Shown in pieces: positions 2,747 through 21,053 of a stretch of 48,005 nucleotides of DNA (positions are counted from its first letter, which is position 1; each line of letters opens with the position of its first letter). A program made the translations under genes and the position numbers. Source of the DNA: Mycobacterium sp. Marseille-P9652 (lineage in GTDB: Bacteria; Actinomycetota; Actinomycetes; Mycobacteriales; Mycobacteriaceae); contig NZ_CACRUY010000044.1 in NCBI RefSeq assembly GCF_902652685.1, forward strand, positions 1 through 48,005, read 5' to 3'. Below the pieces are notes generated by a model. That model was not told where the DNA came from and did no database searches. It was given only the letters and a program-made list of their open reading frames with translations.

Positions 2747-2941
2747 TCAGACGGCCAGAGGCACCGATTCGGCGCAGCAGCCGCAGCCCACGGCGTCGCA
2801 GTCGATGACGAACGTGTGCGCCACCAGCTCGGGACTGGCGCAATCCGGCTCGGTGCATTCCCACCGGAGCAGGGAGTGGCAAATCAGGGTGCCGTGGCAG
2901 TGATCCAGGCCCGCTCGGCACTCACGGCAGTCGGCGCTCAT
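2747..2941 (-). CDS. Cysteine-rich 64-aa protein
   Basis: This small protein has about ten cysteines and two histidines in 64 residues, arranged as CRxC, HCHGTxxC, CxxPDC and a terminal CxxxxCxCC. The pattern suggests structural zinc or another metal. There is no signal peptide or membrane segment. It sits alone between the gpm2 stop (7 bases away, convergent) and the zincin gene. I do not recognise a named family. It is called real because the Cys pattern is regular, the ATG start is clean, and the opposite-strand reading frames here are low-complexity shadows. Confidence 0.7.
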   Translation of the reverse strand: MSADCRECRAGLDHCHGTLICHSLLRWECTEPDCASPELVAHTFVIDCDAVGCGCCAESVPLAV

Positions 2942-3013
2942 ACGCCGTTCATAACACCGGGCGGGGACAAATCCGGGATGCCGCGCCCGCGCCGCATCGA
3001 TTTGTCGGGCCCG

Positions 3014-3364
3014 TCACGACCAGCCGAGTTCCTCCAGGCGGTCGTCGTCGATGCCGAAGTGGTGGGCGATCTCGTGGATCACCGTCACCGCGACCTCCTC
3101 GACGACGTCCGCGTCGGAGTCGCAGATGTCCAGCAGCGCTTCGCGGTAGATCGTGATGGCGTCCGGCAGGTGCCCGGAGTATTCGGAGTCCCGCTCGGTG
3201 AGCGCGACCCCCTCGTAGAGGCCGAGCAGTTCGGCGTCCTGCGGGTGGCGGTCCTCGACGAGGACGACCACGTTGTCCATCGCGGCCGCCAGCTCCGGCG
3301 GGATCAGGTCGAGCGCATCGGAGACCAGCTCGTCGAAGCGCTGCGGGTCCATCCGCACCGGCAT
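3014..3364 (-). CDS. Small zinc metallopeptidase (zincin-like; Rv3836-like)
   Basis: A 116-aa protein with the zinc motif HEIAHHFGIDDDRLEELGW near its C-terminus (HExxHxxG followed by Asp), as in the compact zincin family PF06262. Catalysis is plausible because both His and the Glu are present; the substrate is unknown. No export signal is seen. Its ATG lies 4 bases after the stop of the septum-formation gene, so the two share a transcript. An internal ATG at codon 5 is an alternative start. Confidence 0.9.
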   Translation of the reverse strand: MPVRMDPQRFDELVSDALDLIPPELAAAMDNVVVLVEDRHPQDAELLGLYEGVALTERDSEYSGHLPDAITIYREALLDICDSDADVVEEVAVTVIHEIAHHFGIDDDRLEELGWS

Positions 3365-3368
3365 CCGG

Positions 3369-4703
3369 CTAGGTTCCCGGCGGGGGAGCGGGCTGGTTGG
3401 CGTCCTGGGGCGGCGCGCCGCCGTCCGGCGGGGGGTTCTGCGGCGCGGGGTTCTGCGGCGCGGGCGCCTGCGATTGGGGAGCCGTGCCTATGGACTGCTG
3501 CCCGGGCAGGTGCTGGTTGTTCGGCGGGATGGCGTCGGGTTGTTGGTTGCCGGGCTGCTGGTTGGTCGGCGCCTGGGCCGGGGATTGCGCCGGCACCTGC
3601 ACCGGGATCGGCGGCAGCGTGAGCCGCTCCTCGGGGATGTCGGGCGGCGGCACGGGCGATTGTCCGTTGATCAGCAGTTGCCCCTTGGCGCTGCCCAGCA
3701 GTGTGGCCCACCCGCCGTTGCCCAGCGTGGCGCCGATACTGCAGGCGACCTGACGGCTACCGGCGGTCCAGCTGGCCAGCTGGACGGTCGGGTAGATCAG
3801 CGTCAACGTCGTCGTGCGCAGCTTGACCGGCGCCAGGTAAGCGTCCGTCATCTTGGTGCACGCGTCCTTGATGAAGCCGTCCTGGTCGGGCTCCGACGGC
3901 AGGGCGCCCGGGAACCTCCCGGCCAGGTTCACCGTCCCCGTCACCTCCATCGCGTGCGGCGCCGCGCAGTCGACCGGGACGTCGATCGGCTGGTTGGTGG
4001 TCGGGTCGATGCCCAGGCAGGTGCCGGCCGGCCACACCTTGGACTGGTCGATGTCGGCGACCTTGCCCTTGAAGGCCTCCTGCTGGTTGTTGGTCCCGGG
4101 CAGCTGCAGCCCGCACAGCATGCGGCGGTCCCCCGATTGTCGCCACGCGCGGTCACCCGGCCATAGCAGGCTGACGGTGAACTTGCTGTTGGGGTCGAAC
4201 TTCGGTCCCAGGTAGGTGCGCACGGCGGCCTCGCACTGCTCCTGGGTGATCTGTTGGATCCGGGCCGGCGACGGGGGCGCGGCGTTGGGCCCGTACTCGG
4301 AGCCGGGGAAGGTCCGCATGTCGATGGATTCGGCGACCTCGAACTTGTGACTGTCGGCGCATTTGACGATGCTGGCCGACTCGGGTGTGGTGTCCGGCCA
4401 CATCAGGCAGTCACCGCCGTTGGCACGGTTGAAGGCGGCGTCGCTCTTGGTGCCGGTGGTGGGCACCGGGTTGCTGTCGAGGTAGCCGGCCAACCGGCCG
4501 GGGCCGCTGCCGCCCACCGGGATCGCGGTGACCAGCCCGGCGATCAGCAGCGCGCCCAGAGCGGTGAGAAGCAGGGCCCGCCTCGTGGCCCGGGCCTGGA
4601 AGCCCTGGGGCCAGCGGAAGGCGGCCGACGTCGCGCCCGCGTGCTCGTCGGGCGGGGCGTCGGAAGCTTCCTTCTCGGGCGCTTGGGTCATCGCCTCCAT
4701 CAT
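3369..4703 (-). CDS. Septum-formation family membrane protein (Rv3835-like)
   Basis: This 444-aa single-pass membrane protein has an acidic cytoplasmic N-terminus, one TM helix (about residues 43-65, [20 protein letters not shown]), and an extracellular region with the paired-Cys pattern of the Septum_form domain (residues about 85-330). A disordered tail of about 100 residues rich in Pro, Gln and Asn follows. Length agrees with Rv3835. A role at the septum is inferred from the domain name only. It is divergent from serS, with about 70 bases between the start codons. Confidence 0.88.
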
Positions 4704-11899: not shown

Positions 11900-12667
11900 G
11901 TGGAACCGGTATACGGGACTGTCATTCAGCTCGCCCGCCTGGTCTGGCGCATACAGGGTCTGCGGATCACTGTTGCGGGCGTCGAGAACCTGCCGAAGAG
12001 CGGTGGCGCCGTCATCGCGATCAACCACACCGGCTACCTGGACTTCACCTTCGCGGGCCTGCCCGCCTACGAGCAGGGGCTGGGCCGCAAGGTCCGGTTC
12101 ATGGCCAAGCAGGAGGTGTTCGACAGCAAGCTCACGGGGCCGATCATGCGCAGCCTGCGCCACATCTCCGTGAACCGGCAGGACGGCGCCGCGTCGTACG
12201 AGGAGGCGGTCCGCAACCTCAAGGACGGTGAGCTGGTGGGCGTCTACCCCGAGGCCACGATCAGCCGCAGCTTCGAGATCAAGGAGTTCAAGTCCGGCGC
12301 CGCGCGCATGGCCGTCGAGGCCGGCGTGCCGATCGTTCCGGTGATCGTCTGGGGCGCGCAGCGGATCTGGACCAAGGGCCACCCGAAGAAGCTGTTCCGC
12401 CCCAAGGTGCCGGTCGTGGTGCTCGTCGGCGAACCGATCCCGCCGACGCTCGGCACCGCGGAACTGAACACGCTGCTGCACTCGCGCATGCAGCACCTGC
12501 TGGAAGAGGCGCAGGCAATCTACGGGCCGCACCCCGCCGGCGAGTTCTGGGTGCCGCGCCGGCTGGGCGGCGGCGCCCCGTCGCTGGCCGAGGCGGCCCG
12601 CATGGACGCGGAGGAGGCGGCCGCCCGGGCGGCGCGCCGCGCCCAGTCCGCGGGGCCGCCGGAGTAG
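11900..12667 (+). CDS. 1-acylglycerol-3-phosphate acyltransferase-like protein (first of three; Rv3816c-like)
   Basis: A 255-aa PlsC-type acyltransferase. Motif I is INHTGYLD (NHxxxxD: the His is catalytic, the Asp is the relay), motif III is YPEATIS and motif IV is VPIVPVIVWG. It would transfer acyl groups to lysophosphatidate or a related lysolipid at the membrane face. An N-terminal amphipathic helix (VIQLARLVWRI) may hold it to the membrane. It is followed at 9 bases by a paralogue. Expected start GTG, with the -10 box 8 bases upstream. The exact acceptor is unknown. Confidence 0.92.
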   Translation: MEPVYGTVIQLARLVWRIQGLRITVAGVENLPKSGGAVIAINHTGYLDFTFAGLPAYEQGLGRKVRFMAKQEVFDSKLTGPIMRSLRHISVNRQDGAASYEEAVRNLKDGELVGVYPEATISRSFEIKEFKSGAARMAVEAGVPIVPVIVWGAQRIWTKGHPKKLFRPKVPVVVLVGEPIPPTLGTAELNTLLHSRMQHLLEEAQAIYGPHPAGEFWVPRRLGGGAPSLAEAARMDAEEAAARAARRAQSAGPPE

Positions 12668-12676
12668 GCGGTCCGC

Positions 12677-13429
12677 GTGGAGCCGACTTTCCGCACCCTC
12701 GAGGCCGTGGCCAAGCTGGTCGTCCGGGCCACGGGAAGCCGGATCACGTTCCGCGGCGAAGAGCACATCCCGGGCCGCGGGGGCGCGGTGATCGCGATCA
12801 ACCACACCAGCTACGTCGACTGGCTGCCCGCCGCGCTGGCCGTCCACCGCCGGCGCCGCCGGCTCAGATTCATGATCAAGGCCGAGATGCAGCGGGTACG
12901 CGTGGTCAATTTCCTGATCCGGCACACCAAGACCATTCCGGTGGACCGCCGCGCCGGGGCGCAGGCCTATGCCGTGGCCGTCCAGCGCCTGCGCGAGGGC
13001 GAGCTCGTCGGCGTCTATCCCGAGGCGACCATCAGCCGCAGCTTCGAGCTCAAGGAGTTCAAAACCGGCGCGGCCCGGATGGCGATCGACGCGGACGTGC
13101 CGATCGTTCCGGTGATCGTGTGGGGAGCACATCGGATCTGGACCAAGGACCACCCGCGGAGCTTAGGCCGCACTAAGATACCGATTACTGTGCAGGTGGG
13201 TGCGCCGTTGCATCCGGCGGACGACATCGCGCGGACCGATGCCGCGCTGCGCGAGTCGATGACGACGCTGCTGCACCTCGCGCAAGGGGACTATCCGCAC
13301 GAGCCTGGGGCGTGGTGGGTGCCGCAGCGGCTGGGCGGTGGGGCACCGGCGGTGGCCGAGGCCGCGCGGATCGAGGCCGAAGAGGCCGCGGCGCGCGCGG
13401 CGAGCCGTAGCGCGCGCCCGTCGCGTTAG
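12677..13429 (+). CDS. PlsC-type acyltransferase (second of three; Rv3815c-like)
   Basis: A 250-aa paralogue of the preceding gene, with motif I INHTSYVDW, YPEATISRSFELKEFKTGAARM (EAT motif) and VPIVPVIVWGAHRIW. The C-terminal tail is Ala/Arg/Glu-rich and diverges from its neighbours. GTG start at 12677, 9 bases after the previous stop. About two thirds of the core appears shared with the flanking copies by eye, which points to tandem duplication. Confidence 0.92.
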   Translation: MEPTFRTLEAVAKLVVRATGSRITFRGEEHIPGRGGAVIAINHTSYVDWLPAALAVHRRRRRLRFMIKAEMQRVRVVNFLIRHTKTIPVDRRAGAQAYAVAVQRLREGELVGVYPEATISRSFELKEFKTGAARMAIDADVPIVPVIVWGAHRIWTKDHPRSLGRTKIPITVQVGAPLHPADDIARTDAALRESMTTLLHLAQGDYPHEPGAWWVPQRLGGGAPAVAEAARIEAEEAAARAASRSARPSR

Positions 13430-13442
13430 GCGAGGAGGAGAC

Positions 13443-14228
13443 ATGCCCGAGGGGTTCTACCGGCTGTGCGAGTGGATCGTTCCCCCGATGGTCGCGATGC
13501 AGGGGACCAAGTTCACGTTCGAGGGCCTCGAGAACATCCCGGCGCGCGGGGGCGCGCTGATCGCCCAGAACCACACCAGCTACCTGGACTGGCTGCCCAC
13601 GCTGCTCGCCGTGAAGGAGCGCGGCCGGCGCGCGTACTTCATGATCAAGGCCGAGATGGCCGACGTGAAGGCGGTCAACTACGTCATCAACCACGCCCGG
13701 CTGATCCCGGTGGACCGCAGGGCCGGCCATGACGCGTTCGACGTGGCCGTGCAGCGGCTGCGGCAGGGGGAGCTGATCGGCATGCACCCCGAGGCCACGA
13801 TCAGCCGCAGCTACGAGCTGCGCGAGTTCAAGACCGGCGCCGCCCGGATGGCGCAGGCCGGCGGGGTGCCGATCCTGCCGGTCATCGTGTGGGGTGCGCA
13901 CCGGATCTGGCCCAAGGACCATCCCAAGAAGGTGTTCCGCAACAAGGTTCCGGTCACGGTCTCCGTCGGGCGGCCGCTGCCGCCGCACGGCACCCCTGAG
14001 CAGCTGAACTCGGAGCTGCGGCAGGCGATGAAGTCGATGCTCTACCGCGTCCAGGAGGAGTATCCGCATCCGGCGGGCGAGTACTGGGTGCCGCGGCGGC
14101 TGGGCGGGGCCGCGCCGACACAGGACATCTCCCAGGCGATCCGGCTGGCCGAACTGCAGGAGCGCGCCAAGAGGTACGGGACCGACGGGGTGACGCGGCC
14201 GGGGCAGAATCAGAGCGGATTGCATTGA
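13443..14228 (+). CDS. PlsC-type acyltransferase (third of three; Rv3814c-like)
   Basis: A 261-aa protein, the length I recall for Rv3814c. Motif I is QNHTSYLDW. The EAT motif reads HPEATIS, with His in place of the Tyr of the other two copies. The ATG at 13443 is preceded by a strong GGAGGAG site, the only strong one in the triplet, so this copy may be translated best. Its stop overlaps the following HAD gene. Confidence 0.93.
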   Translation: MPEGFYRLCEWIVPPMVAMQGTKFTFEGLENIPARGGALIAQNHTSYLDWLPTLLAVKERGRRAYFMIKAEMADVKAVNYVINHARLIPVDRRAGHDAFDVAVQRLRQGELIGMHPEATISRSYELREFKTGAARMAQAGGVPILPVIVWGAHRIWPKDHPKKVFRNKVPVTVSVGRPLPPHGTPEQLNSELRQAMKSMLYRVQEEYPHPAGEYWVPRRLGGAAPTQDISQAIRLAELQERAKRYGTDGVTRPGQNQSGLH

Positions 14229-15160: not shown

Positions 15161-15862
15161 GTGGCCTCTGACGACGAGTCGCCGCCGGAGGGTGACACAC
15201 CGGCACAAGACAACCCCAGGCACGCGAAAGGCGAGGACGGTCAGCCCGCCGGGGAGGCGACCGACGAGGCCGTTTCGGCGCCGGGCGGCGAATCCGACGA
15301 CGAGGAGACCGGCGGGTCGTCCTCCGGCGGGAGCGTCCGCTTTCAGGACGCGGAGACGTCGCGGCCGCGTCCGCCCAAGCCCGCGGAGCTACGGGCCCGC
15401 AAGAAGTACGAGGACAAGCAGCGCGAGATCGAAGAGGCGCGGCTCGCGGCCGAAGCCAAGCGGCAGAAGCGCAACCGGCGGCTGATCGGCGGCGCGGCCG
15501 CGGTCGGTGTGGTGGGAGTCGTTGCGGGGCTGGGCTATTGGGCGTTGTCGCCGAGCACCGTCACCGCGCAGTGCGTGCAGGACGACCCGAACGGCAACCC
15601 CGTGATCGTCCCGGACAGCTATTGCACCGGCCACACCGCGGGTATGAACGGTTTCTTCTTCTGGGGCGGCCACTCGTACCGCTACTACTACGGCAGCTCG
15701 GGAACCATTGGTTCGCGGCCGATCGGCGGGACCACCGTCGCGCCCAAGGGCGCCACCATCACGACCAAGTCGGGCAGCACGATTCAGCGCGGCGGGTTCG
15801 GGAGCAAGTTCGGGGGCGGTAGCAAGGGCGGCGGCGGTGGGAGCAAGGGCGGCGGCTCGTGA
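15161..15862 (+). CDS. YgiB/DUF1190-like membrane-anchored protein of the ATP-grasp cassette
   Basis: The 233-aa protein has four parts. An acidic disordered N-terminus (1-70) is followed by a charged coiled-coil segment (76-107, ELRARKKYEDKQREIEEARL), one TM helix (108-129), and a periplasm-side part. The last part has two cysteines (138 and 155), an aromatic patch (FFFWGGHSYRYYYGSS) and a Gly/Ser/Lys tail beginning RGGFG (210-214). The RGGFG ending and the partnership with a YgiC-like ligase resemble E. coli YgiB/YjfM (DUF1190), from memory. The GTG at 15161 has GGGAGA upstream. The stop overlaps the ligase start (GTGA). The tail could be an acceptor for the ligase, but this is a guess. Confidence 0.75.
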   Translation: MASDDESPPEGDTPAQDNPRHAKGEDGQPAGEATDEAVSAPGGESDDEETGGSSSGGSVRFQDAETSRPRPPKPAELRARKKYEDKQREIEEARLAAEAKRQKRNRRLIGGAAAVGVVGVVAGLGYWALSPSTVTAQCVQDDPNGNPVIVPDSYCTGHTAGMNGFFFWGGHSYRYYYGSSGTIGSRPIGGTTVAPKGATITTKSGSTIQRGGFGSKFGGGSKGGGGGSKGGGS

Positions 15863-17025
15863 AGCGCGCCCGTTCGCGACCGCGACCGAAGTGGCGGTCG
15901 ATCGTCGAGTCCCAGGGCCTGGTCTACGGCACGCCCGCCCGTGACGCGACCGGCGCCGACCGGCCGTACTGGGACGAGTCGGTGCACTACGAATTCGAGA
16001 TGGACGAAATCCTCGCGCTGGAAGCCGACGTCGAGCTGCTGCACTCGATGTGCATGAACGCCGTCGAGCAGGTCGTGCTGATGGAGCGGTACGCGGATTT
16101 CGGCCTGCCGGAATGGAGTTGGCAGGCGATCGGCGAGTCGTGGCGGCGCTCCGACCCCCATGTGTACGGGCGGTTCGACCTTCGTTACGACGGCCGGCGG
16201 CCTGCGGTGCTGCTCGAGTACAACGCCGACACGCCGACCACCCTGCTGGAGGCGGCGATCCTGCAGTGGTACTGGCTGAAGGACGTGTTCCCCAACGACG
16301 ACCAGTGGAACTCGCTGCACGAGCAGCTGGTCGACCGATGGAAAGTGGTTCGGGACTTGTTGCCCGGCAACGAGATTCACTTCACCTGGTCCGGCGCCGA
16401 GGCCACCGGCGAGGATCAGATCACCACCACCTACATGCAGGAGACCGCCGCCGAGGCGGGCTTCAACACCGTGGGGTTGACCATCGAGGACATCGGCTGG
16501 GACGCCGCCCTGGAGCGGTTCGTCGACCTCGAGGAGTCGGAGATCCACGCGATCTTCAAGCTGCACCCGTGGGAGTGGGTGCTCGACGACGAGTTCGGCA
16601 AGTACGCGGTGTCGAGCCTGCCGCGCACGACGTGGATCGAGCCGCTGTGGAAGACGCTGCTGTCGAACAAGGCGATCCTGGCCGTGCTGTGGGAGATGTA
16701 TCCCGGCCACCCAAACCTCCTGCCCGCCTACCTCGACGACCCGCACGAGCTGGTCGAATACGTCCGCAAGCCGAAGCTCGGTCGCGAGGGGGCGAACATC
16801 ACCGTCGTCGGCGCCGGGATGGAGACCGCCACCGGCGGCGTCTACGGCGAGGAGGGGTACGTCTACCAACTGCTGGACCCGCTGCCCGAATTCGACGACA
16901 TGCGCCCCGCATTGGGGGCGTGGATCGTCGGCGACTCATCGGCCGGGCTGGGCATCCGCGAGACGGCCGGCCTGATCACCGACGACGGCGCGGCCTTCGT
17001 GCCCCATCGGATTCCGCTCAAATGA
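15859..17025 (+). CDS. Glutathionylspermidine-synthase-like ATP-grasp ligase (YgiC/YjfC family)
   Basis: The 388-aa protein has the full synthetase-domain signature set of GspS and YgiC: RFDLRYDG, LLEYNADTPTTLLEA, FKLHPWEW, IEPLWKTLLSNKAILAVLWE, LLPAYL, RKPKLGREGANI and GIRETAGLI. Lys and Glu ATP/Mg ligands appear present. No N-terminal CHAP amidase domain is found, so it resembles YgiC and not bifunctional E. coli GspS. The family joins a carboxylate to an amine using ATP. Mycobacteria lack glutathione, so the acceptor must be something else. The start overlaps the previous stop by 4 bases. A decarboxylase-spermidine synthase fusion 2 kb away suggests that the amine is a polyamine. Confidence 0.93.
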   Translation: MKRARSRPRPKWRSIVESQGLVYGTPARDATGADRPYWDESVHYEFEMDEILALEADVELLHSMCMNAVEQVVLMERYADFGLPEWSWQAIGESWRRSDPHVYGRFDLRYDGRRPAVLLEYNADTPTTLLEAAILQWYWLKDVFPNDDQWNSLHEQLVDRWKVVRDLLPGNEIHFTWSGAEATGEDQITTTYMQETAAEAGFNTVGLTIEDIGWDAALERFVDLEESEIHAIFKLHPWEWVLDDEFGKYAVSSLPRTTWIEPLWKTLLSNKAILAVLWEMYPGHPNLLPAYLDDPHELVEYVRKPKLGREGANITVVGAGMETATGGVYGEEGYVYQLLDPLPEFDDMRPALGAWIVGDSSAGLGIRETAGLITDDGAAFVPHRIPLK

Positions 17026-17058
17026 ACTTCCCGCCAACATGATTGGAGTTGATCGCCG

Positions 17059-17529
17059 ATGACCCAGCGCGACATGGCGTTGAATTCGAGCTACTGGGAC
17101 CAGGGCTACATGGCCGTGCTCGGCCGCGGCGCCGGCGCGATCGTGCTGTACGCCATCGTCGGCCTGGTCCTGATGCTGATCGGTTTCTACGCGATCGACC
17201 TCACCACTCCCGGGCCGCTGCGCAAGATGGTCGACGCAGGGAAACCGAACGCGATCATCGTGTCGGCCGCCGGCATGGTCAGCATGGCGCTCATCGTGGT
17301 GCTCGCGATCTACGCCTCGTCGGGCAAGCTGCTCGAAGGGCTGGTGGGTGCGGCGGTCTTCGGCCTGGTGGGCATCGCGGCCCAGGTGGTGATGATGCGC
17401 ATCGCCACGTTCGCGATCGGCATCGACATGCACGCGCTGTTCGAGGCCGACGAGTTCTGCCACGAGGCCATGCTGGTGGCCTCGGCGCAATTCGCCCTCG
17501 GGATCGTCGTGGCGGTGGCGATCCTCTAG
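17059..17529 (+). CDS. DUF350 membrane protein (YjfL-like)
   Basis: A 156-aa protein with four TM helices (around 24-46, 73-93, 103-125 and 137-155), a duplicated two-helix unit typical of DUF350/YjfL. It follows the ATP-grasp gene by 33 bases with a GGAG site at 17045-17048. In enterobacteria yjfL lies beside yjfM and yjfC, so all three components of that cassette occur here in one operon. The function is unknown; an envelope-stress role is inferred for the family. Its TAG shares CTAG (17526-17529) with the stop of the convergent PE gene. Confidence 0.88.
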   Translation: MTQRDMALNSSYWDQGYMAVLGRGAGAIVLYAIVGLVLMLIGFYAIDLTTPGPLRKMVDAGKPNAIIVSAAGMVSMALIVVLAIYASSGKLLEGLVGAAVFGLVGIAAQVVMMRIATFAIGIDMHALFEADEFCHEAMLVASAQFALGIVVAVAIL

Positions 17530-19064
17530 CCCGTCGGTGTGATCGCGGCGGCGAGCTGCTGGGGCACGTAGTTGATCAGCAGCGGCGCGAGGCCCATGAA
17601 CGGCGTGCCGAAGATGGTGACCGGAATCGTTGTGTTCGGGATGACGGCGCTCAAGTCGATGGTGGCCGTAAGGGGGTGCGGCGGAACGAGAATGCCGTCG
17701 AACGGCAGGTGCAGAATGATCGGCACGGTGAAGCTGGAAATGAACGGGTTCGGGGGCACGGTGACCGGAACCGGGATCGTGATGTTCATGATGGCTTCGC
17801 CGTTGAGGAAGCCGTCCACTACGAAGGCCGGAGTGTCGATCAGCGCGCCGAAGGCTCCGACGGGATTTCCCGCCAAGAGCGCCTGTTGCACCGCGGTCGC
17901 CCCCGTGGCCAGTCCGTTGAGGGCTGAAAGCGGCGCACCCGCGACCGCGTAGCTGAACACCAGCGGCAGCCCGAAGTAGGTCGCGAGGTAGCCGTTCGCC
18001 GTGGGGGGAAGCCCCAATTGCACGTCAAGCTGGGCCACCGCCGAAATGCTCGGGATCGTCAGCTTGTTGAGCACGTTGGTGAAGTTCTGCGACATCTGTC
18101 GCGGGATCGACGGCGGAATGAGGTCCGTCAGATACTGCGCCTCCTGGCCGGGGATGTTCAGGATGTTGAAGAAGTCGCCGAGCGGGCCGAGCAGTGTGGG
18201 ACTCACCCCCGCAGTGACGGTGACATCGGGGAAGTTGATAGCCAGATCAAGCGCGACCGGGCCGGGATTGGCTCCGGTGACGAAGAGGTTTCCGAAGGCC
18301 TGCGCCACGTCGTTCACCGCACCGAAGTAGTCGCCGGCAAGCCACGCCTGCAACGCCACTCCAAGCCCCGCCCGGAAGGCGGGAAACCCGTTCACGAGGT
18401 CGGTTGCCATGTTGCCCAGCGACGTCACCAACTCCTGGCCGAAACCGATCTGGGTGGCGATGAACTGCTCGGCGAAAGTCAACGGGTTGGCGGCGAGCAG
18501 TTGCTGAATGCCGGCCTGGGTGGTTGCCGGCAGGTTGGCCACGATCGCGGGGAAGTTCTGGATCGTGTAGTTGAGTGTCGCCGCGATCTGCTGCAAGTAG
18601 CCGATCTGGTTGGCGATCACCTGGCGCAGGAACGGGAACGGGTTGGCCCCCCAGGCGCCGAAGAGGGACTGCAGGTTGGCTTCGGTGTGGGCGAAAAGCT
18701 GCACGTAGGCGTCACCGGGCGCGGCGGCCGCGGCCGCGCCGGTGAGGGGCACCGTCGCGGCGCCGAGCAGGTTCTGTTCGGCGTTGGCGAGGTCGGTGCT
18801 CAGGTAGGCCGCCGCGCTGCCGATCAGCACGCGCACGAACTCGTCGTGTAACGCCGCCGCTTGGGTGGTGATGGCCTGGAACTCCTGGCCGAAGGTGCCG
18901 AACAGGCGCGACACGGCGACCGAGACCTCGTCCTGGGCCGCGGCGACCACCCCGGTGGTGGGCCCGGCCGCCGCCGCGGTCGCCTCCTGCAGTCCGGAGC
19001 CGATGTTCGCCAGGTCTCCCGCCGCCGATGTCAACAGGTCCGGTGCTGTGAGCACGAACGACAT
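17526..19064 (-). CDS. PE-family protein (Rv3812 / PE_PGRS62-like)
   Basis: A 512-aa protein beginning MSFVLTAPDLLTSAAGDLANI, a standard PE domain (about 1-95, ending near NAEQNLL). A long region without PGRS repeats follows, then a C-terminal beta-rich domain rich in Pro and Ile (IPVPVTVPPNPF, HLPFDGILVPPHPLTATIDL) that ends NYVPQQLAAAITPTG. The absence of GGX repeats and this C-terminus fit Rv3812, known as PE_PGRS62 despite little PGRS. The ATG at 19062-19064 is preceded by GGAGGGGAG; a longer in-frame start at 19091 is not needed. Secretion by a type VII system is expected. It lies 39 bases downstream of the decarboxylase fusion in the same direction. Confidence 0.9.
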   Translation of the reverse strand: MSFVLTAPDLLTSAAGDLANIGSGLQEATAAAAGPTTGVVAAAQDEVSVAVSRLFGTFGQEFQAITTQAAALHDEFVRVLIGSAAAYLSTDLANAEQNLLGAATVPLTGAAAAAAPGDAYVQLFAHTEANLQSLFGAWGANPFPFLRQVIANQIGYLQQIAATLNYTIQNFPAIVANLPATTQAGIQQLLAANPLTFAEQFIATQIGFGQELVTSLGNMATDLVNGFPAFRAGLGVALQAWLAGDYFGAVNDVAQAFGNLFVTGANPGPVALDLAINFPDVTVTAGVSPTLLGPLGDFFNILNIPGQEAQYLTDLIPPSIPRQMSQNFTNVLNKLTIPSISAVAQLDVQLGLPPTANGYLATYFGLPLVFSYAVAGAPLSALNGLATGATAVQQALLAGNPVGAFGALIDTPAFVVDGFLNGEAIMNITIPVPVTVPPNPFISSFTVPIILHLPFDGILVPPHPLTATIDLSAVIPNTTIPVTIFGTPFMGLAPLLINYVPQQLAAAITPTG

Positions 19065-19103
19065 GGCCGTCTCCCCTCCACGAACCAGCAAGTGAGTCCA
19101 AGC

Positions 19104-21053
19104 CTACTGTGACGGGCCCCACACATCTGGCAAACCCCGAAGGGTCTTCGGCGGAATCGTGGCCGCCCCGAGCGACACGGCGTCCACGGTGTGCGGCCGG
19201 TAGGGCAACGACGGCAACCGCGCGCGCATCGTCGCGACCGGGTCCCCGGTATGCCCGGGCATGCCCGACAGGAACGCCCACTCGTGCTCGTCGCTGCCGA
19301 AGTAGACGACGGTCCCGAAGGTCTCGCCGAAGCGCCGCCACGACCGGCGCAGCGATTCGCTGCGCCAGAGCGTCGGGCACCCGGCCTGGGCGGTCACGAC
19401 GCCGCCGATGTCGCGGCAGCGCTCGAGGAAGTCGGCGTCGTAGAGCCGGTTGTGCTGAGCGGGGCCGGTGCGCTCGTCGGGCAGGTCGACCACCACGATG
19501 TCGTAGCGCGTCCTGGATTGCTCGACGAAGCTCCAGCCGTCGCGGTAGTGCACGGTGACCGGCCCCAAACCCTGCTCGGCGCGGCGCAATTCGTCCACCG
19601 AGTAGCCGTACGGCAGGTGCTCGGCGCACAGCCGGACCGCCTCTGCGTCGATGTCGACGTGGTCGACGCGCGTGGCGCCGGCGGCCACCGCCAGCTGGCT
19701 CACCACGCCCTCGCCGGACCCGATGACGAGGACGCGCTCGATCCGATCCGCCAACAGCAGCGCGGGGACGAGCAACGCCTCGTGATAGACGAGCTGGCTC
19801 AGCTCGGTGCTCTGGCGCTCCCCGTCGCTGAACAGGCCGACGCCCTGGGCCGTGCGGCCGATCACCAGGTGCTGGAAGTCGGTGCGCACGTCGCAGAGGA
19901 CCTCGTCAAGGCGCCAGTGCCGGGTAAGCCCGGGGGCCAGCGGTTCGACGATGTCGCGGGGGGCCGCCCAAGGTGCCCCCTCGGCGACGAAATAGGTTGG
20001 CAGCGGAGCAATTCCGTTGAAGGCCGCCGACGCGTAGCTGGCGGTGTACGCGCCGGCGCCCTCGATGCGGACGTGGTCGCCGGGTCGCAGCGTCACCGGC
20101 AGTGGGTAGCTCCGGTAGAGCACGTCGTCCCCGTCGCACGTCGGACCCGCGACCACCGCGTCGTCAGTCGGATCGCCGTCACGGTCGCTGCGCAACCGGT
20201 AGCGGATGTACTCGTTCTCCGTCTCGGCCAGGCCCCCGTAGCGGCCGACGTCCAGGTACACCCAGCGCCTGCCGTCGGTGCCGGTCCGCGTGGACGCCAC
20301 CTCGCAGTCGATCGTGCCGGCCGACGCGACGAGGGCCCGCCCGGGTTCCACCACGAGCGTCGGCTGCCGGCCCCCGAAGCAGAGCTCCAGCGCCGATCGG
20401 ATGGAGTCGGCGAACGCTTCGAGTGGCGGCGCGCCGGTGGCATACGCGACGGGAAACCCGCCCCCCACGTTGAGTGTCGCCAGCCCCTCGACCGCGTCGA
20501 ATATGTCTGCGGCGCTGCGTATTCCGAGCCCCCAGGCCGCCGGGTCCAGCTGCTGCGAGCCGACATGGAAGCAGACGCCGTCCGGGCGGAGGCCGAGCCG
20601 ACGGGCGTGATCGAGCAGCCCCGCGGCGGCCGCCGGGTCACAACCGAATTTGTGCCCGAACGGGGTGACCGACGCCGGGAATGCCGGAGCGATGCGGCAT
20701 TCCACCCGCGCCCCGGGGGCGTGTCGGGCGAGCGCCGTCGCGCCGTCCTCGGTGTCGAACGCGAACCGCCGCACGCCGGCCGACCACGCCGCGGCCACCG
20801 TCGACGGTTTACGGATCGTGTTGCCGAACGCCAGCAGACGTCCCTCGATGCCTGCCGAGGCGCACGCGGCGATCTCACCGGATGACGCCACGTCGAATTC
20901 GGCACCCTCGGCGGCCAGCAGTCGCAATACCGGATCGGCGGGATTGGCCTTGACCGCGTACCGGATCCGGGCCTCGGGGAGCAGGGCCCGCAATGCACGG
21001 AAGTTACCGCGCACCCGATCGAGATCGATCGTCAGGTAAGGCGTCTCGGGCAC
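19104..21053 (-). CDS. Ornithine-decarboxylase-like / spermidine-synthase-like fusion protein
   Basis: A 649-aa chain with two enzymes. Residues 1-375 are a fold-III PLP decarboxylase: YAVKANP (PLP Lys35), HVGSQ (163-167), GGGFP (197-201), EPGRAL (236-241), and the active-site GPTCDGDD (Cys306, Asp307, Asp310). Residues 380-649 are spermidine-synthase-like: FSDGERQ, LVYHEALLVP, the nucleotide loop VIGSGEGVVSQLA (443-455), HVDIDAEAV, and DIVVVDLPDERTGPAQHNRL with acidic residues replacing the usual DSTDPVGP. Together they could make a diamine and then alkylate it. The substrate may be ornithine or lysine. GTG start; TACTGT (21062-21067) 8 bases upstream is a leaderless-type -10. I recall no such gene here in M. 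tuberculosis. Confidence 0.9.
   Translation of the reverse strand: MPETPYLTIDLDRVRGNFRALRALLPEARIRYAVKANPADPVLRLLAAEGAEFDVASSGEIAACASAGIEGRLLAFGNTIRKPSTVAAAWSAGVRRFAFDTEDGATALARHAPGARVECRIAPAFPASVTPFGHKFGCDPAAAAGLLDHARRLGLRPDGVCFHVGSQQLDPAAWGLGIRSAADIFDAVEGLATLNVGGGFPVAYATGAPPLEAFADSIRSALELCFGGRQPTLVVEPGRALVASAGTIDCEVASTRTGTDGRRWVYLDVGRYGGLAETENEYIRYRLRSDRDGDPTDDAVVAGPTCDGDDVLYRSYPLPVTLRPGDHVRIEGAGAYTASYASAAFNGIAPLPTYFVAEGAPWAAPRDIVEPLAPGLTRHWRLDEVLCDVRTDFQHLVIGRTAQGVGLFSDGERQSTELSQLVYHEALLVPALLLADRIERVLVIGSGEGVVSQLAVAAGATRVDHVDIDAEAVRLCAEHLPYGYSVDELRRAEQGLGPVTVHYRDGWSFVEQSRTRYDIVVVDLPDERTGPAQHNRLYDADFLERCRDIGGVVTAQAGCPTLWRSESLRRSWRRFGETFGTVVYFGSDEHEWAFLSGMPGHTGDPVATMRARLPSLPYRPHTVDAVSLGAATIPPKTLRGLPDVWGPSQ

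What the first reader, a model, noticed from the sequence alone, without database searches (positions are those of the whole stretch)
15161..21053. Candidate polyamine synthesis and conjugation system wrapped around a PE gene
A YgiB-like protein, a YgiC-like ATP-grasp ligase and a DUF350 protein (+ strand operon) face a decarboxylase-spermidine synthase fusion (- strand), with only a PE gene between them. In M. tuberculosis the Rv3813c-Rv3812-Rv3811 neighbours carry none of these four genes, as I recall. One side would make a polyamine and the other would join an amine to a carboxylate at the membrane. With no glutathione in mycobacteria, the product should be novel, for instance a polyamine-modified envelope protein, peptide or lipid. 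The two added parts sit on either side of the PE gene, so either two insertions were selected together or one larger island was ancestral.
Basis: partly seen in the sequence, partly recalled or inferred. Interest (0 to 1): 0.88.

Follow-up and report, generated by a model that had tools for sequence, protein, structure and literature searches.

The report
Polyamine-ligase island missing its middle enzyme
Some mycobacteria carry, side by side, a two-in-one polyamine-making enzyme that has lost the usual middle enzyme of the pathway and a ligase that probably attaches polyamines to a membrane protein, which gives a concrete handle on the old puzzle of how mycobacteria make the missing intermediate.

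Summary
The genes are real. A YgiB-like membrane protein, a YgiC-type peptide-polyamine ligase and a DUF350 protein face a convergent decarboxylase-aminopropyltransferase (ODC-SpeE) fusion; the PE gene between them is optional. The ligase cassette is a known kind (E. coli ygiBC, yjfLMC). (1) All 27 full-length fusions in a 198-genome genus sample lie in ligase-bearing genomes (55 of 198). Relatives carry ODC plus an unfused SpeD-SpeE protein, and two such loci already face the cassette. (2) The fusion is apparently what remains after AdoMetDC (SpeD) was lost: ODC is joined to the old SpeD-SpeE linker, the fused SpeE domains form one group beside SpeD-SpeE forms, and no canonical AdoMetDC was found in the 27 genomes. 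Yet the checked active-site residues persist and SpeE stays under purifying selection, so a source of decarboxylated SAM is missing, a gap already noted in print for M. tuberculosis. (3) In every readable locus the YgiB-like partner ends in RGG-x-G plus a Gly/Ser-rich tail, as in E. coli; it is my candidate ligase substrate. Against strict coupling: 25 of 55 ligase genomes have no ODC-SpeE. Most function is inferred.

The parts
15161..15862 (+). YgiB-like single-span membrane protein, partner of the ligase (233 aa): charged N-terminal half, hydrophobic stretch at about 107-130, Cys-containing and Tyr-rich domain, Gly/Ser-rich tail
   Evidence: position directly upstream of the ligase as in E. 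coli ygiBC and yjfMC
15788..15862 (+). RGGFG motif (residues 210-214) plus a 19-residue Gly/Ser/Lys tail ending GGGS-stop; proposed acyl substrate (C-terminal carboxylate) of the ligase
   Evidence: RGG[FLI]G in 54 of 54 readable mycobacterial loci, last two residues GS in 49, GG in 3, SS in 2; E. coli YgiB and YjfM have RGGFG and RGGYG and end GG; 8 of 8 further actinobacterial loci alike
15859..17025 (+). YgiC-type ATP-grasp acid-amine (peptide-polyamine) ligase, overlapping the stop of the gene before
   Evidence: PF03738 E 8e-147; PDB 7uk8 YgiC E 3e-86; 41% and 39% identical to E. coli YgiC and YjfC; omega 0.074-0.078 among fusion-bearing loci
17059..17529 (+). DUF350 integral membrane protein (YjfL-like)
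   Evidence: PF03994 E 5e-16; several hydrophobic spans
17526..19064 (-). PE-domain protein between the two halves; optional
   Evidence: PF00934 E 6e-30; a match to it lies between the halves in 12 of 25 loci, none with a gap under 500 bases in 12 of 25, one other with a 1.4-kb gap
19104..21053 (-). ODC-SpeE fusion (649 aa), convergent to the ligase cassette
19989..21053 (-). PLP-dependent ornithine/lysine decarboxylase-like domain (residues 1-355)
   Evidence: PF02784/PF00278, PDB 5gjm E 8e-56; nine checked residues conserved in 33 of 33 fusions
19965..19988 (-). junction where the SpeD (AdoMetDC) domain stands in the unfused relatives
19107..19964 (-). aminopropyltransferase (SpeE-like) domain (residues 364-649)
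   Evidence: PF01564 E 1e-13; GEG acid and catalytic Asp present in 33 of 33 fusions

Best explanation
It is a polyamine-supply and peptide-polyamine-ligation module. Shown: the genes, their linkage, their co-occurrence (uncorrected for kinship), and a fused supply enzyme that retains the decarboxylase and aminopropyltransferase domains but lacks the AdoMetDC domain present in its unfused relatives. Inferred from families: the N-terminal domain makes putrescine (or cadaverine) and the C-terminal domain adds an aminopropyl group from decarboxylated SAM. Inferred: AdoMetDC was lost in this lineage, so decarboxylated SAM must come from an unidentified enzyme elsewhere. Inferred: the YgiC-type ligase, using ATP, joins the polyamine to a peptide carboxylate, most likely the Gly/Ser C-terminus of the YgiB-like membrane protein encoded directly before it, before that tail leaves the cytoplasm. 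DUF350 is the membrane partner. The result would be a membrane protein with a cationic tail that tunes the envelope. The PE gene is a passenger.
For: Co-occurrence in the genus: 30 of 30 ODC-SpeE genomes have the ligase against 25 of 168 others, Fisher p 1e-20. Class samples of 394: 9 of 9 ODC-SpeE genomes have it against 81 of 385, p 1e-6 (taken to be the same 394, since the handles shown recur). Nocardia (genus of G300, named from its place in the tree): 112 of 114 with SpeD-SpeE have it against 2 of 14 without, p 3e-13; about 7 kb around 39 Nocardia ODC-SpeD-SpeE loci show no cassette, so this is not close linkage. None of these p values corrects for kinship. Unfused ODC + SpeD-SpeE faces the cassette in L155 and L159. 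Loss of SpeD: the IVEPxAPG stretch at the SpeD/SpeE boundary is kept in the fusions, where ODC joins it directly; all 27 fusions run through both domains in one frame; 25 fused SpeE domains form one group (93/88) beside mycobacterial SpeD-SpeE forms, with Nocardia and other actinobacterial forms further out; PF02675 has no match in 26 of the 27 fusion genomes, and the one hit (G110) is a short ORF without the ESHxSIH motif. Function kept: ten SpeE and nine ODC positions read in 33 fusions are conserved, apart from one Ser-to-Ala and one locus not covered at one position; SpeE omega is 0.20-0.22 in fusions, 0.24 in SpeD-bearing Nocardia, 0.16 in 12 unfused mycobacterial pairs. Ligase identity: 41% and 39% to E. 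coli YgiC and YjfC, which RefSeq names peptide--spermidine ligases. Partner tail.
Against: 25 of 55 ligase genomes have no ODC-SpeE pair; 4 of 5 of those searched have no Spermine_synth protein. In Nocardia the joint absence is essentially one event: 12 genomes plus G596 form one clade, and at most 1 of 4 independent pairs is informative, so the association there is not significant once kinship counts. Two Nocardia genomes have SpeD-SpeE without ligase (G596, G630) and two the reverse (G598, 85% complete, and G626). G066 has a cassette of the linked clade without ODC-SpeE. The fusions' SpeE omega (0.20-0.22) is above that of the 12 unfused mycobacterial pairs (0.16), so slight relaxation is possible. 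Nine ODC positions and two SpeE positions share no residue between fused and the few unfused rows, none of them among the active-site positions checked. The partner's tail should lie outside the membrane (positive-inside rule, my inference) while an ATP-grasp enzyme is cytosolic. Its last residue is mostly Ser in mycobacteria, not Gly. M. smegmatis is reported to hold no detectable polyamines (passage in PMC8503589), although PMC11841054 says that spermine synthesis has been reported in Mycobacterium (passage).
Confidence: 0.5

Rival explanations
1. The ligase uses the diamine itself. After AdoMetDC was lost the module runs on putrescine or cadaverine from the decarboxylase domain, and the SpeE domain remains as a scaffold or regulatory part.
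For: No canonical AdoMetDC found in the fusion genomes, no PF01536 match in 27 of 27 (where no control rang either). The ligase also occurs without any SpeE protein (4 of 5 genomes searched). The decarboxylase domain keeps all checked residues. SpeE omega in fusions is a little above that of unfused mycobacterial pairs.
Against: The SpeE domain keeps its checked binding and catalytic residues in 33 of 33 fusions (one Ser-to-Ala; one locus not covered at one position) and its omega is no higher than in SpeD-bearing Nocardia, which a scaffold would not need.
Confidence: 0.2
2. No shared pathway. The three-gene ligase cassette and the polyamine fusion are separate systems that ended up side by side in one clade and are inherited together.
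For: The cassette stands alone at several other sites in the genus (27 loci). The adjacent arrangement is one clade of the ligase tree. The Nocardia association is one event.
Against: G149 and G157 (Mycolicibacterium-type by their place in the SpeE tree) carry unlinked ODC + SpeD-SpeE and a ligase of the other clade. In the class sample 5 of 5 genomes outside the genus with ODC, SpeD and SpeE have the ligase. The E. coli relatives are reported to use spermidine (title seen in reference lists).
Confidence: 0.17
3. The fusion has become an AdoMetDC-free route: either the decarboxylase domain also decarboxylates SAM, or the SpeE domain moves the aminocarboxypropyl group of SAM to putrescine and the decarboxylase domain then decarboxylates the carboxyspermidine.
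For: AdoMetDC was not found while both partners stay under selection and are now one chain.
Against: None of the active-site positions checked differs between fused and unfused forms in either domain; the nine ODC and two SpeE positions without a shared residue are not among them. The acidic residue of IGSGEG, which in known aminopropyltransferases lies by the donor's amine (recalled), is unchanged in 33 of 33.
Confidence: 0.1

Closest known systems
E. coli ygiB-ygiC and yjfL-yjfM-yjfC (peptide-spermidine ligase cassettes)
   Same: Same kinds of protein: an ATP-grasp ligase (41% and 39% identical), a membrane-anchored or lipoprotein partner ending RGG-x-G ... GG, and, in the yjf operon, DUF350.
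   Different: The gene order differs, the mycobacterial partner is not scored as DUF1190, and the E. coli stretches shown hold no decarboxylase or aminopropyltransferase.
Operons of ATP-grasp ligase, DUF350, DUF1190, AdoMetDC and polyamine genes described by Ravi et al. 2024 (PMC11237479, passages read)
   Same: The same families clustered with polyamine genes, including variants with AdoMetDC.
   Different: The passages read there describe no ODC-SpeE fusion and no loss of AdoMetDC.
SpeD-SpeE fusions (functional in Pelagibacter, PMC11107197 passages; Nocardia farcinica and others from Green et al. 2011, recalled, not held)
   Same: The SpeE half has the same make-up as in the unfused relatives here, which are SpeD-SpeE proteins with ODC upstream.
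   Different: Here SpeD is gone and ODC has taken its place at the N-terminus.
DUF350 + longer SpeE pair elsewhere in the same genome (Rv2600-Rv2601-like; naming recalled)
   Same: DUF350 (PF03994, 73 bits) next to an aminopropyltransferase (PF01564, 119 bits), again without AdoMetDC in the genome.
   Different: The SpeE there is a 513-aa protein with a hydrophobic N-terminal half (by eye) and GGGDG; the genome's single ligase match lies in the window.

Membership tests
YgiC/YjfC-type acid-amine ligase | GSP_synth domain over the curated cut-off along the whole protein | tested here: met
   489.7 bits against 29.3, residues 12-385
YgiC/YjfC-type acid-amine ligase | full-length similarity to E. 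coli YgiC/YjfC with conserved motifs | tested here: met
   41% and 39% identity; LLExNADTPT, REG and GIRE shared by 5 of 5 aligned proteins
YgiC/YjfC-type acid-amine ligase | joins spermidine to a peptide carboxylate | not testable with these tools
   needs an enzyme assay
Bifunctional glutathionylspermidine synthetase/amidase (Gsp) | equivalog model over cut-off, amidase domain present | tested here: not met
   121.6 bits against 882; 388 aa, no second domain
DUF1190 (YgiB) | PF06693 over its cut-off | tested here: not met
   no match for the window protein; two relatives 9.1 and 10.3 bits against 22, aligned at the C-terminal end
DUF350 | PF03994 over its cut-off | tested here: met
   59.5 bits against 26
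Ornithine/lysine decarboxylase, alanine-racemase fold | both Pfam domains over cut-off and PLP/active-site residues kept | tested here: met
   Lys of VKAN, HVGS, EPGR, PTCD, GAYT in 33 of 33 fusions
Ornithine/lysine decarboxylase, alanine-racemase fold | decarboxylates ornithine or lysine | not testable with these tools
   closest solved relatives are lysine/ornithine decarboxylases
Spermidine synthase (SpeE) equivalog | equivalog models over cut-off | tested here: not met
   TIGR00417 73.9 against 249.55, NF002010 98 against 260
Aminopropyltransferase superfamily domain | PF01564 over cut-off and catalytic Asp/Tyr/Gln kept | tested here: met
   51.7 against 22.9; residues
Complete AdoMetDC-dependent spermidine pathway | an AdoMetDC in the genome | tested here: not met
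   PF02675 without a match in the own genome and 26 of 27 fusion genomes, the 27th non-canonical; PF01536 0 of 27 with no control ringing

The most novel reading that the evidence does not exclude
The fusion is a working AdoMetDC-free spermidine synthase (SAM decarboxylated, or its aminocarboxypropyl group moved and then decarboxylated, within one chain), feeding a ligase that caps the C-terminus of an envelope protein with a polyamine: a new route to spermidine and a new kind of bacterial protein modification in one locus.
Probability: 0.08. Interest if true: 0.92.

Novelty: new variant of a known kind. Interest (0 to 1): 0.6.

Why it matters
Venos et al. 2004 (PMC524486, passages read) write that M. 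tuberculosis has an easily identifiable spermidine synthase homologue but no SAM decarboxylase homologue, call this the most glaring omission, and cite SAM decarboxylase activity in M. bovis homogenates with no known enzyme. Here a lineage apparently lost AdoMetDC from the middle of its own operon and kept both flanking enzymes under selection as one protein. That makes the question testable with one purified protein. The conserved tail of the YgiB-like partner also offers a direct candidate for the natural substrate of the YgiC ligases. In the titles and abstract starts that my paper searches listed I saw nothing on the fusion or on this tail, but the lists were capped and the library lacks most subscription journals.

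Tried and rejected
Considered and rejected: (a) the PE gene as part of the system: no PE match between the halves, and a gap under 500 bases, in 12 of 25 loci. (b) Two separate insertions around a PE gene: L155 and L159 show the two halves already facing each other without PE. (c) Fusion as an independent merger of ODC with a SpeD-free SpeE: the kept SpeD-SpeE linker and the tree speak against it. (d) A switch of the SpeE domain to another donor on loss of SpeD: the two SpeE positions that share no residue between 25 fused and 4 unfused rows are poorly conserved ones near the C-terminus, and the checked active-site positions are the same. (e) Decay of the SpeE domain: residues and omega speak against it, though slight relaxation is possible. 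(f) A hidden AdoMetDC in fusion genomes: only G110 rings, in an ORF without the ESHxSIH motif. (g) Stop codons in the fusions: one search counted one or two stops inside the match in 7 of 27; in all 7 both domains lie in one stop-free frame, so the stops are at the end of the match.

Led nowhere or limited: the Nocardia co-occurrence is strong by count but one event by tree (one search was the same tree with some rows on the wrong strand and is superseded). PF01536 rang in no control. The AlphaFold model of the fusion (21 sequences) is middling: mean pLDDT 72.7, pTM 0.50, residues about 251-363 poor, residues 381-640 at 80 or more in 17 of 26 ten-residue blocks. The fold search could not be run. 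Not held in the library: Li 2019, Green 2011, Iyer 2009, Pederick 2023, Sui 2012; what is said of them is recalled or from titles in reference lists.

Rows dropped: 3 of 57 YgiB-like loci where the hit fell in a wrong-frame short ORF (L065, L074, L078), and among the 54 left L047 and L155 appear to be the same contig; L094 (a second, divergent ligase of G014) left out of the ligase tree and L098 (broken copy in G089) out of the SpeE sets; L149 left out of alignment A1 because its stretch held a stop codon, and A1 used 20 of the 33 fusion loci; Nocardia rows thinned to about one in four in the SpeE tree (52 of 81 rows used); 40 of 128 Nocardia genomes used in the marker tree; only pairs with dS under 0.9 count.

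Full report
What is there. The window (5.7-Mb genome in 128 contigs) holds at 15161-17529 (+) a three-gene cassette: a YgiB-like membrane protein, a YgiC-type ATP-grasp ligase and a DUF350 protein. The ligase start overlaps the stop of the YgiB-like gene. At 19104-21053 (-) lies one frame of 649 aa with an alanine-racemase-fold decarboxylase (residues 1-355) and a spermidine-synthase-like domain (364-649). A PE gene lies between them (17526-19064, -).

The cassette is a known kind. E. coli K-12 has ygiB-ygiC and yjfL(DUF350)-yjfM(DUF1190)-yjfC; RefSeq names YgiC and YjfC peptide--spermidine ligases. The window ligase is 41% and 39% identical to them. A paper on that activity (Pederick et al. 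2023) was seen only as a title in reference lists. Ravi et al. 2024 (passages read) describe operons joining this ligase, DUF350 and DUF1190 with polyamine genes, AdoMetDC among them.

Distribution in the genus. Of 198 genomes, 55 have PF03738. Twenty-seven carry the full-length fusion, each in one frame, and all 27 are among the 55 (checked). Three more (G005, G149, G157) have the unfused decarboxylase and SpeE pair and also the ligase. That makes 30 of 30, against 25 of 168 genomes without the pair (Fisher p 1e-20, no correction for kinship). G117 has SpeD-SpeE with no decarboxylase in the fetched 20 kb, and no ligase; G089 has a broken copy and no ligase. In 24 of the 27 the cassette and fusion lie in one fetched stretch; in G007, G010 and G015 they lie on different contigs.

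Wider distribution. In a class-wide sample of 394 genomes, 9 carry a decarboxylase-SpeE pair (4 of the window's genus with the fusion, 5 others with decarboxylase, SpeD and SpeE together) and all 9 have the ligase, against 81 of 385 (I take the two samples of 394 to be the same, since the handles shown recur). Four further genomes with only a SpeD match or weak SpeD/SpeE matches and no decarboxylase (G227, G349, G526, G566) are not among the ligase genomes listed. In 128 Nocardia genomes, 114 have a SpeD-SpeE match and 112 of these have the ligase; of the 14 without, 2 have the ligase. On a marker tree of 40 of these genomes, 12 double absences plus G596 form one clade (100/100), so this is one joint absence and not independent proof. 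In 39 Nocardia loci the decarboxylase and SpeD-SpeE sit together with no cassette within about 7 kb, less at some contig ends.

How the fusion arose. In Nocardia, several Mycolicibacterium-type genomes, M. talmoniae and a MAG, the order is decarboxylase, then SpeD (AdoMetDC) and SpeE in one ORF where read. The six SpeD domains printed keep ESHASIH. In the fusions the decarboxylase end (mostly ..LPTYF) is followed by 6-12 varied residues and then IVEPLAPGLT or a near variant, the stretch which in the unfused forms stands between SpeD and SpeE (my pattern found it in 18 of 34 fused loci, the window included, and failed on 16). The 25 fused SpeE domains form one group (93/88; 90% of 200 bootstrap trees) beside mycobacterial SpeD-SpeE forms, with Nocardia and other actinobacterial SpeD-SpeE forms further out. 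The simplest reading is a single loss of the SpeD stretch that joined its neighbours. Branch support is good but not maximal.

AdoMetDC is missing. PF02675 has no match in the window's genome (the control rang in 8 of 14 known genomes). In the 198 genomes it matches 6, of which one, G110, is a fusion genome; that hit is a short ORF without ESHxSIH. PF01536 gave 0 of 27, but no control rang. A second DUF350-SpeE pair lies elsewhere in the same genome. Venos et al. 2004 state that M. tuberculosis lacks a recognisable SAM decarboxylase and cite the activity in M. bovis homogenates (passages read).

Both domains look active. Ten SpeE and nine decarboxylase positions (chosen from recalled knowledge of these families) were read in 33 fusion, 7 unfused mycobacterial and 39 Nocardia loci. 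They are conserved, apart from one Ser-to-Ala in a fusion, one Asp-to-Glu in an unfused form and a few loci not covered at single positions. Elsewhere two SpeE and nine decarboxylase positions share no residue between 25 fused and 4 or 3 unfused rows. Median pairwise omega in fusions is 0.22 for the decarboxylase, 0.20-0.22 for SpeE and 0.075 for the ligase; for SpeE it is 0.24 in Nocardia and 0.16 in 12 unfused mycobacterial pairs (pairs are not independent). So SpeE is still under purifying selection after the loss of SpeD; a slight relaxation against the unfused mycobacterial forms cannot be ruled out.

The likely ligase substrate. The YgiB-like partner has RGG[FLI]G near the end in 54 of 54 readable loci, followed by a Gly/Ser-rich tail of 9-18 residues (19 in the window) whose last two residues are GS in 49, GG in 3 and SS in 2. 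E. coli YgiB and YjfM have RGGFG and RGGYG and end GG. In eight further actinobacterial loci the ORF before the ligase ends QRGGFGFHSGGGG, SRGGAGGRGGSGGG, LRGGFGGSGSSGS, QRGGLGSKSGGGS or alike. The tail varies in length but its end hardly does, as expected if the C-terminus itself is recognised. Glutathionylspermidine synthetase joins spermidine to a C-terminal Gly (recalled), which fits. The difficulty is topology: by the positive-inside rule the tail lies outside the membrane.

What does not fit. 25 of 55 ligase genomes lack the decarboxylase-SpeE pair, and 4 of 5 such genomes searched (G050, G196, G162, G128, not G049) have no Spermine_synth protein. So the ligase does not need this supply; the supply rarely occurs without the ligase. 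The asymmetry suggests that the ligase is the effector and the polyamine enzymes an accessory. The envelope role is inference only.

Verdict. New variant of a known kind, interest 0.6.

Noticed in passing
L256:1309-2850 (-) and 2847-3452 (-), own genome G000:C39: A second DUF350 gene overlapping a 513-aa spermidine-synthase gene next to a YebC gene (Pfam), with no AdoMetDC in the genome.
   Followed up: partly
L265:4470-5765 (-), genome G106: A different SpeD-SpeE protein (41% and 31% to the ones studied, GGGEG motif) with no decarboxylase or ligase of the kind studied within the fetched 11 kb.
   Followed up: partly
L264:2961-3473 (+), genome G110: A SpeD-like ORF of 170 aa without the ESHxSIH motif of AdoMetDC, in a genome with the ODC-SpeE fusion.
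   Followed up: partly
L098 (genome G089, 3.2 Mb): A genome with a broken decarboxylase-SpeE copy at the same site and no ligase; several neighbouring genes match only in pieces too.
   Followed up: no
L084 (genome G066): A ligase cassette of the linked clade standing without the decarboxylase-SpeE fusion.
   Followed up: no
window 12677-14228 (+): Two acyltransferase genes in tandem (PF01553) before the HAD hydrolase; in related loci two tracts match the first of these, so a third copy may lie upstream at 11900-12667.
   Followed up: no
Nocardia G227, G571, G581, G582, G597, G617, G654, G655, G662, G663, G669, G674: A Nocardia clade (with G596) that keeps a SpeD-only match but lacks both SpeD-SpeE and the ligase; G596 has SpeD-SpeE.
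   Followed up: partly
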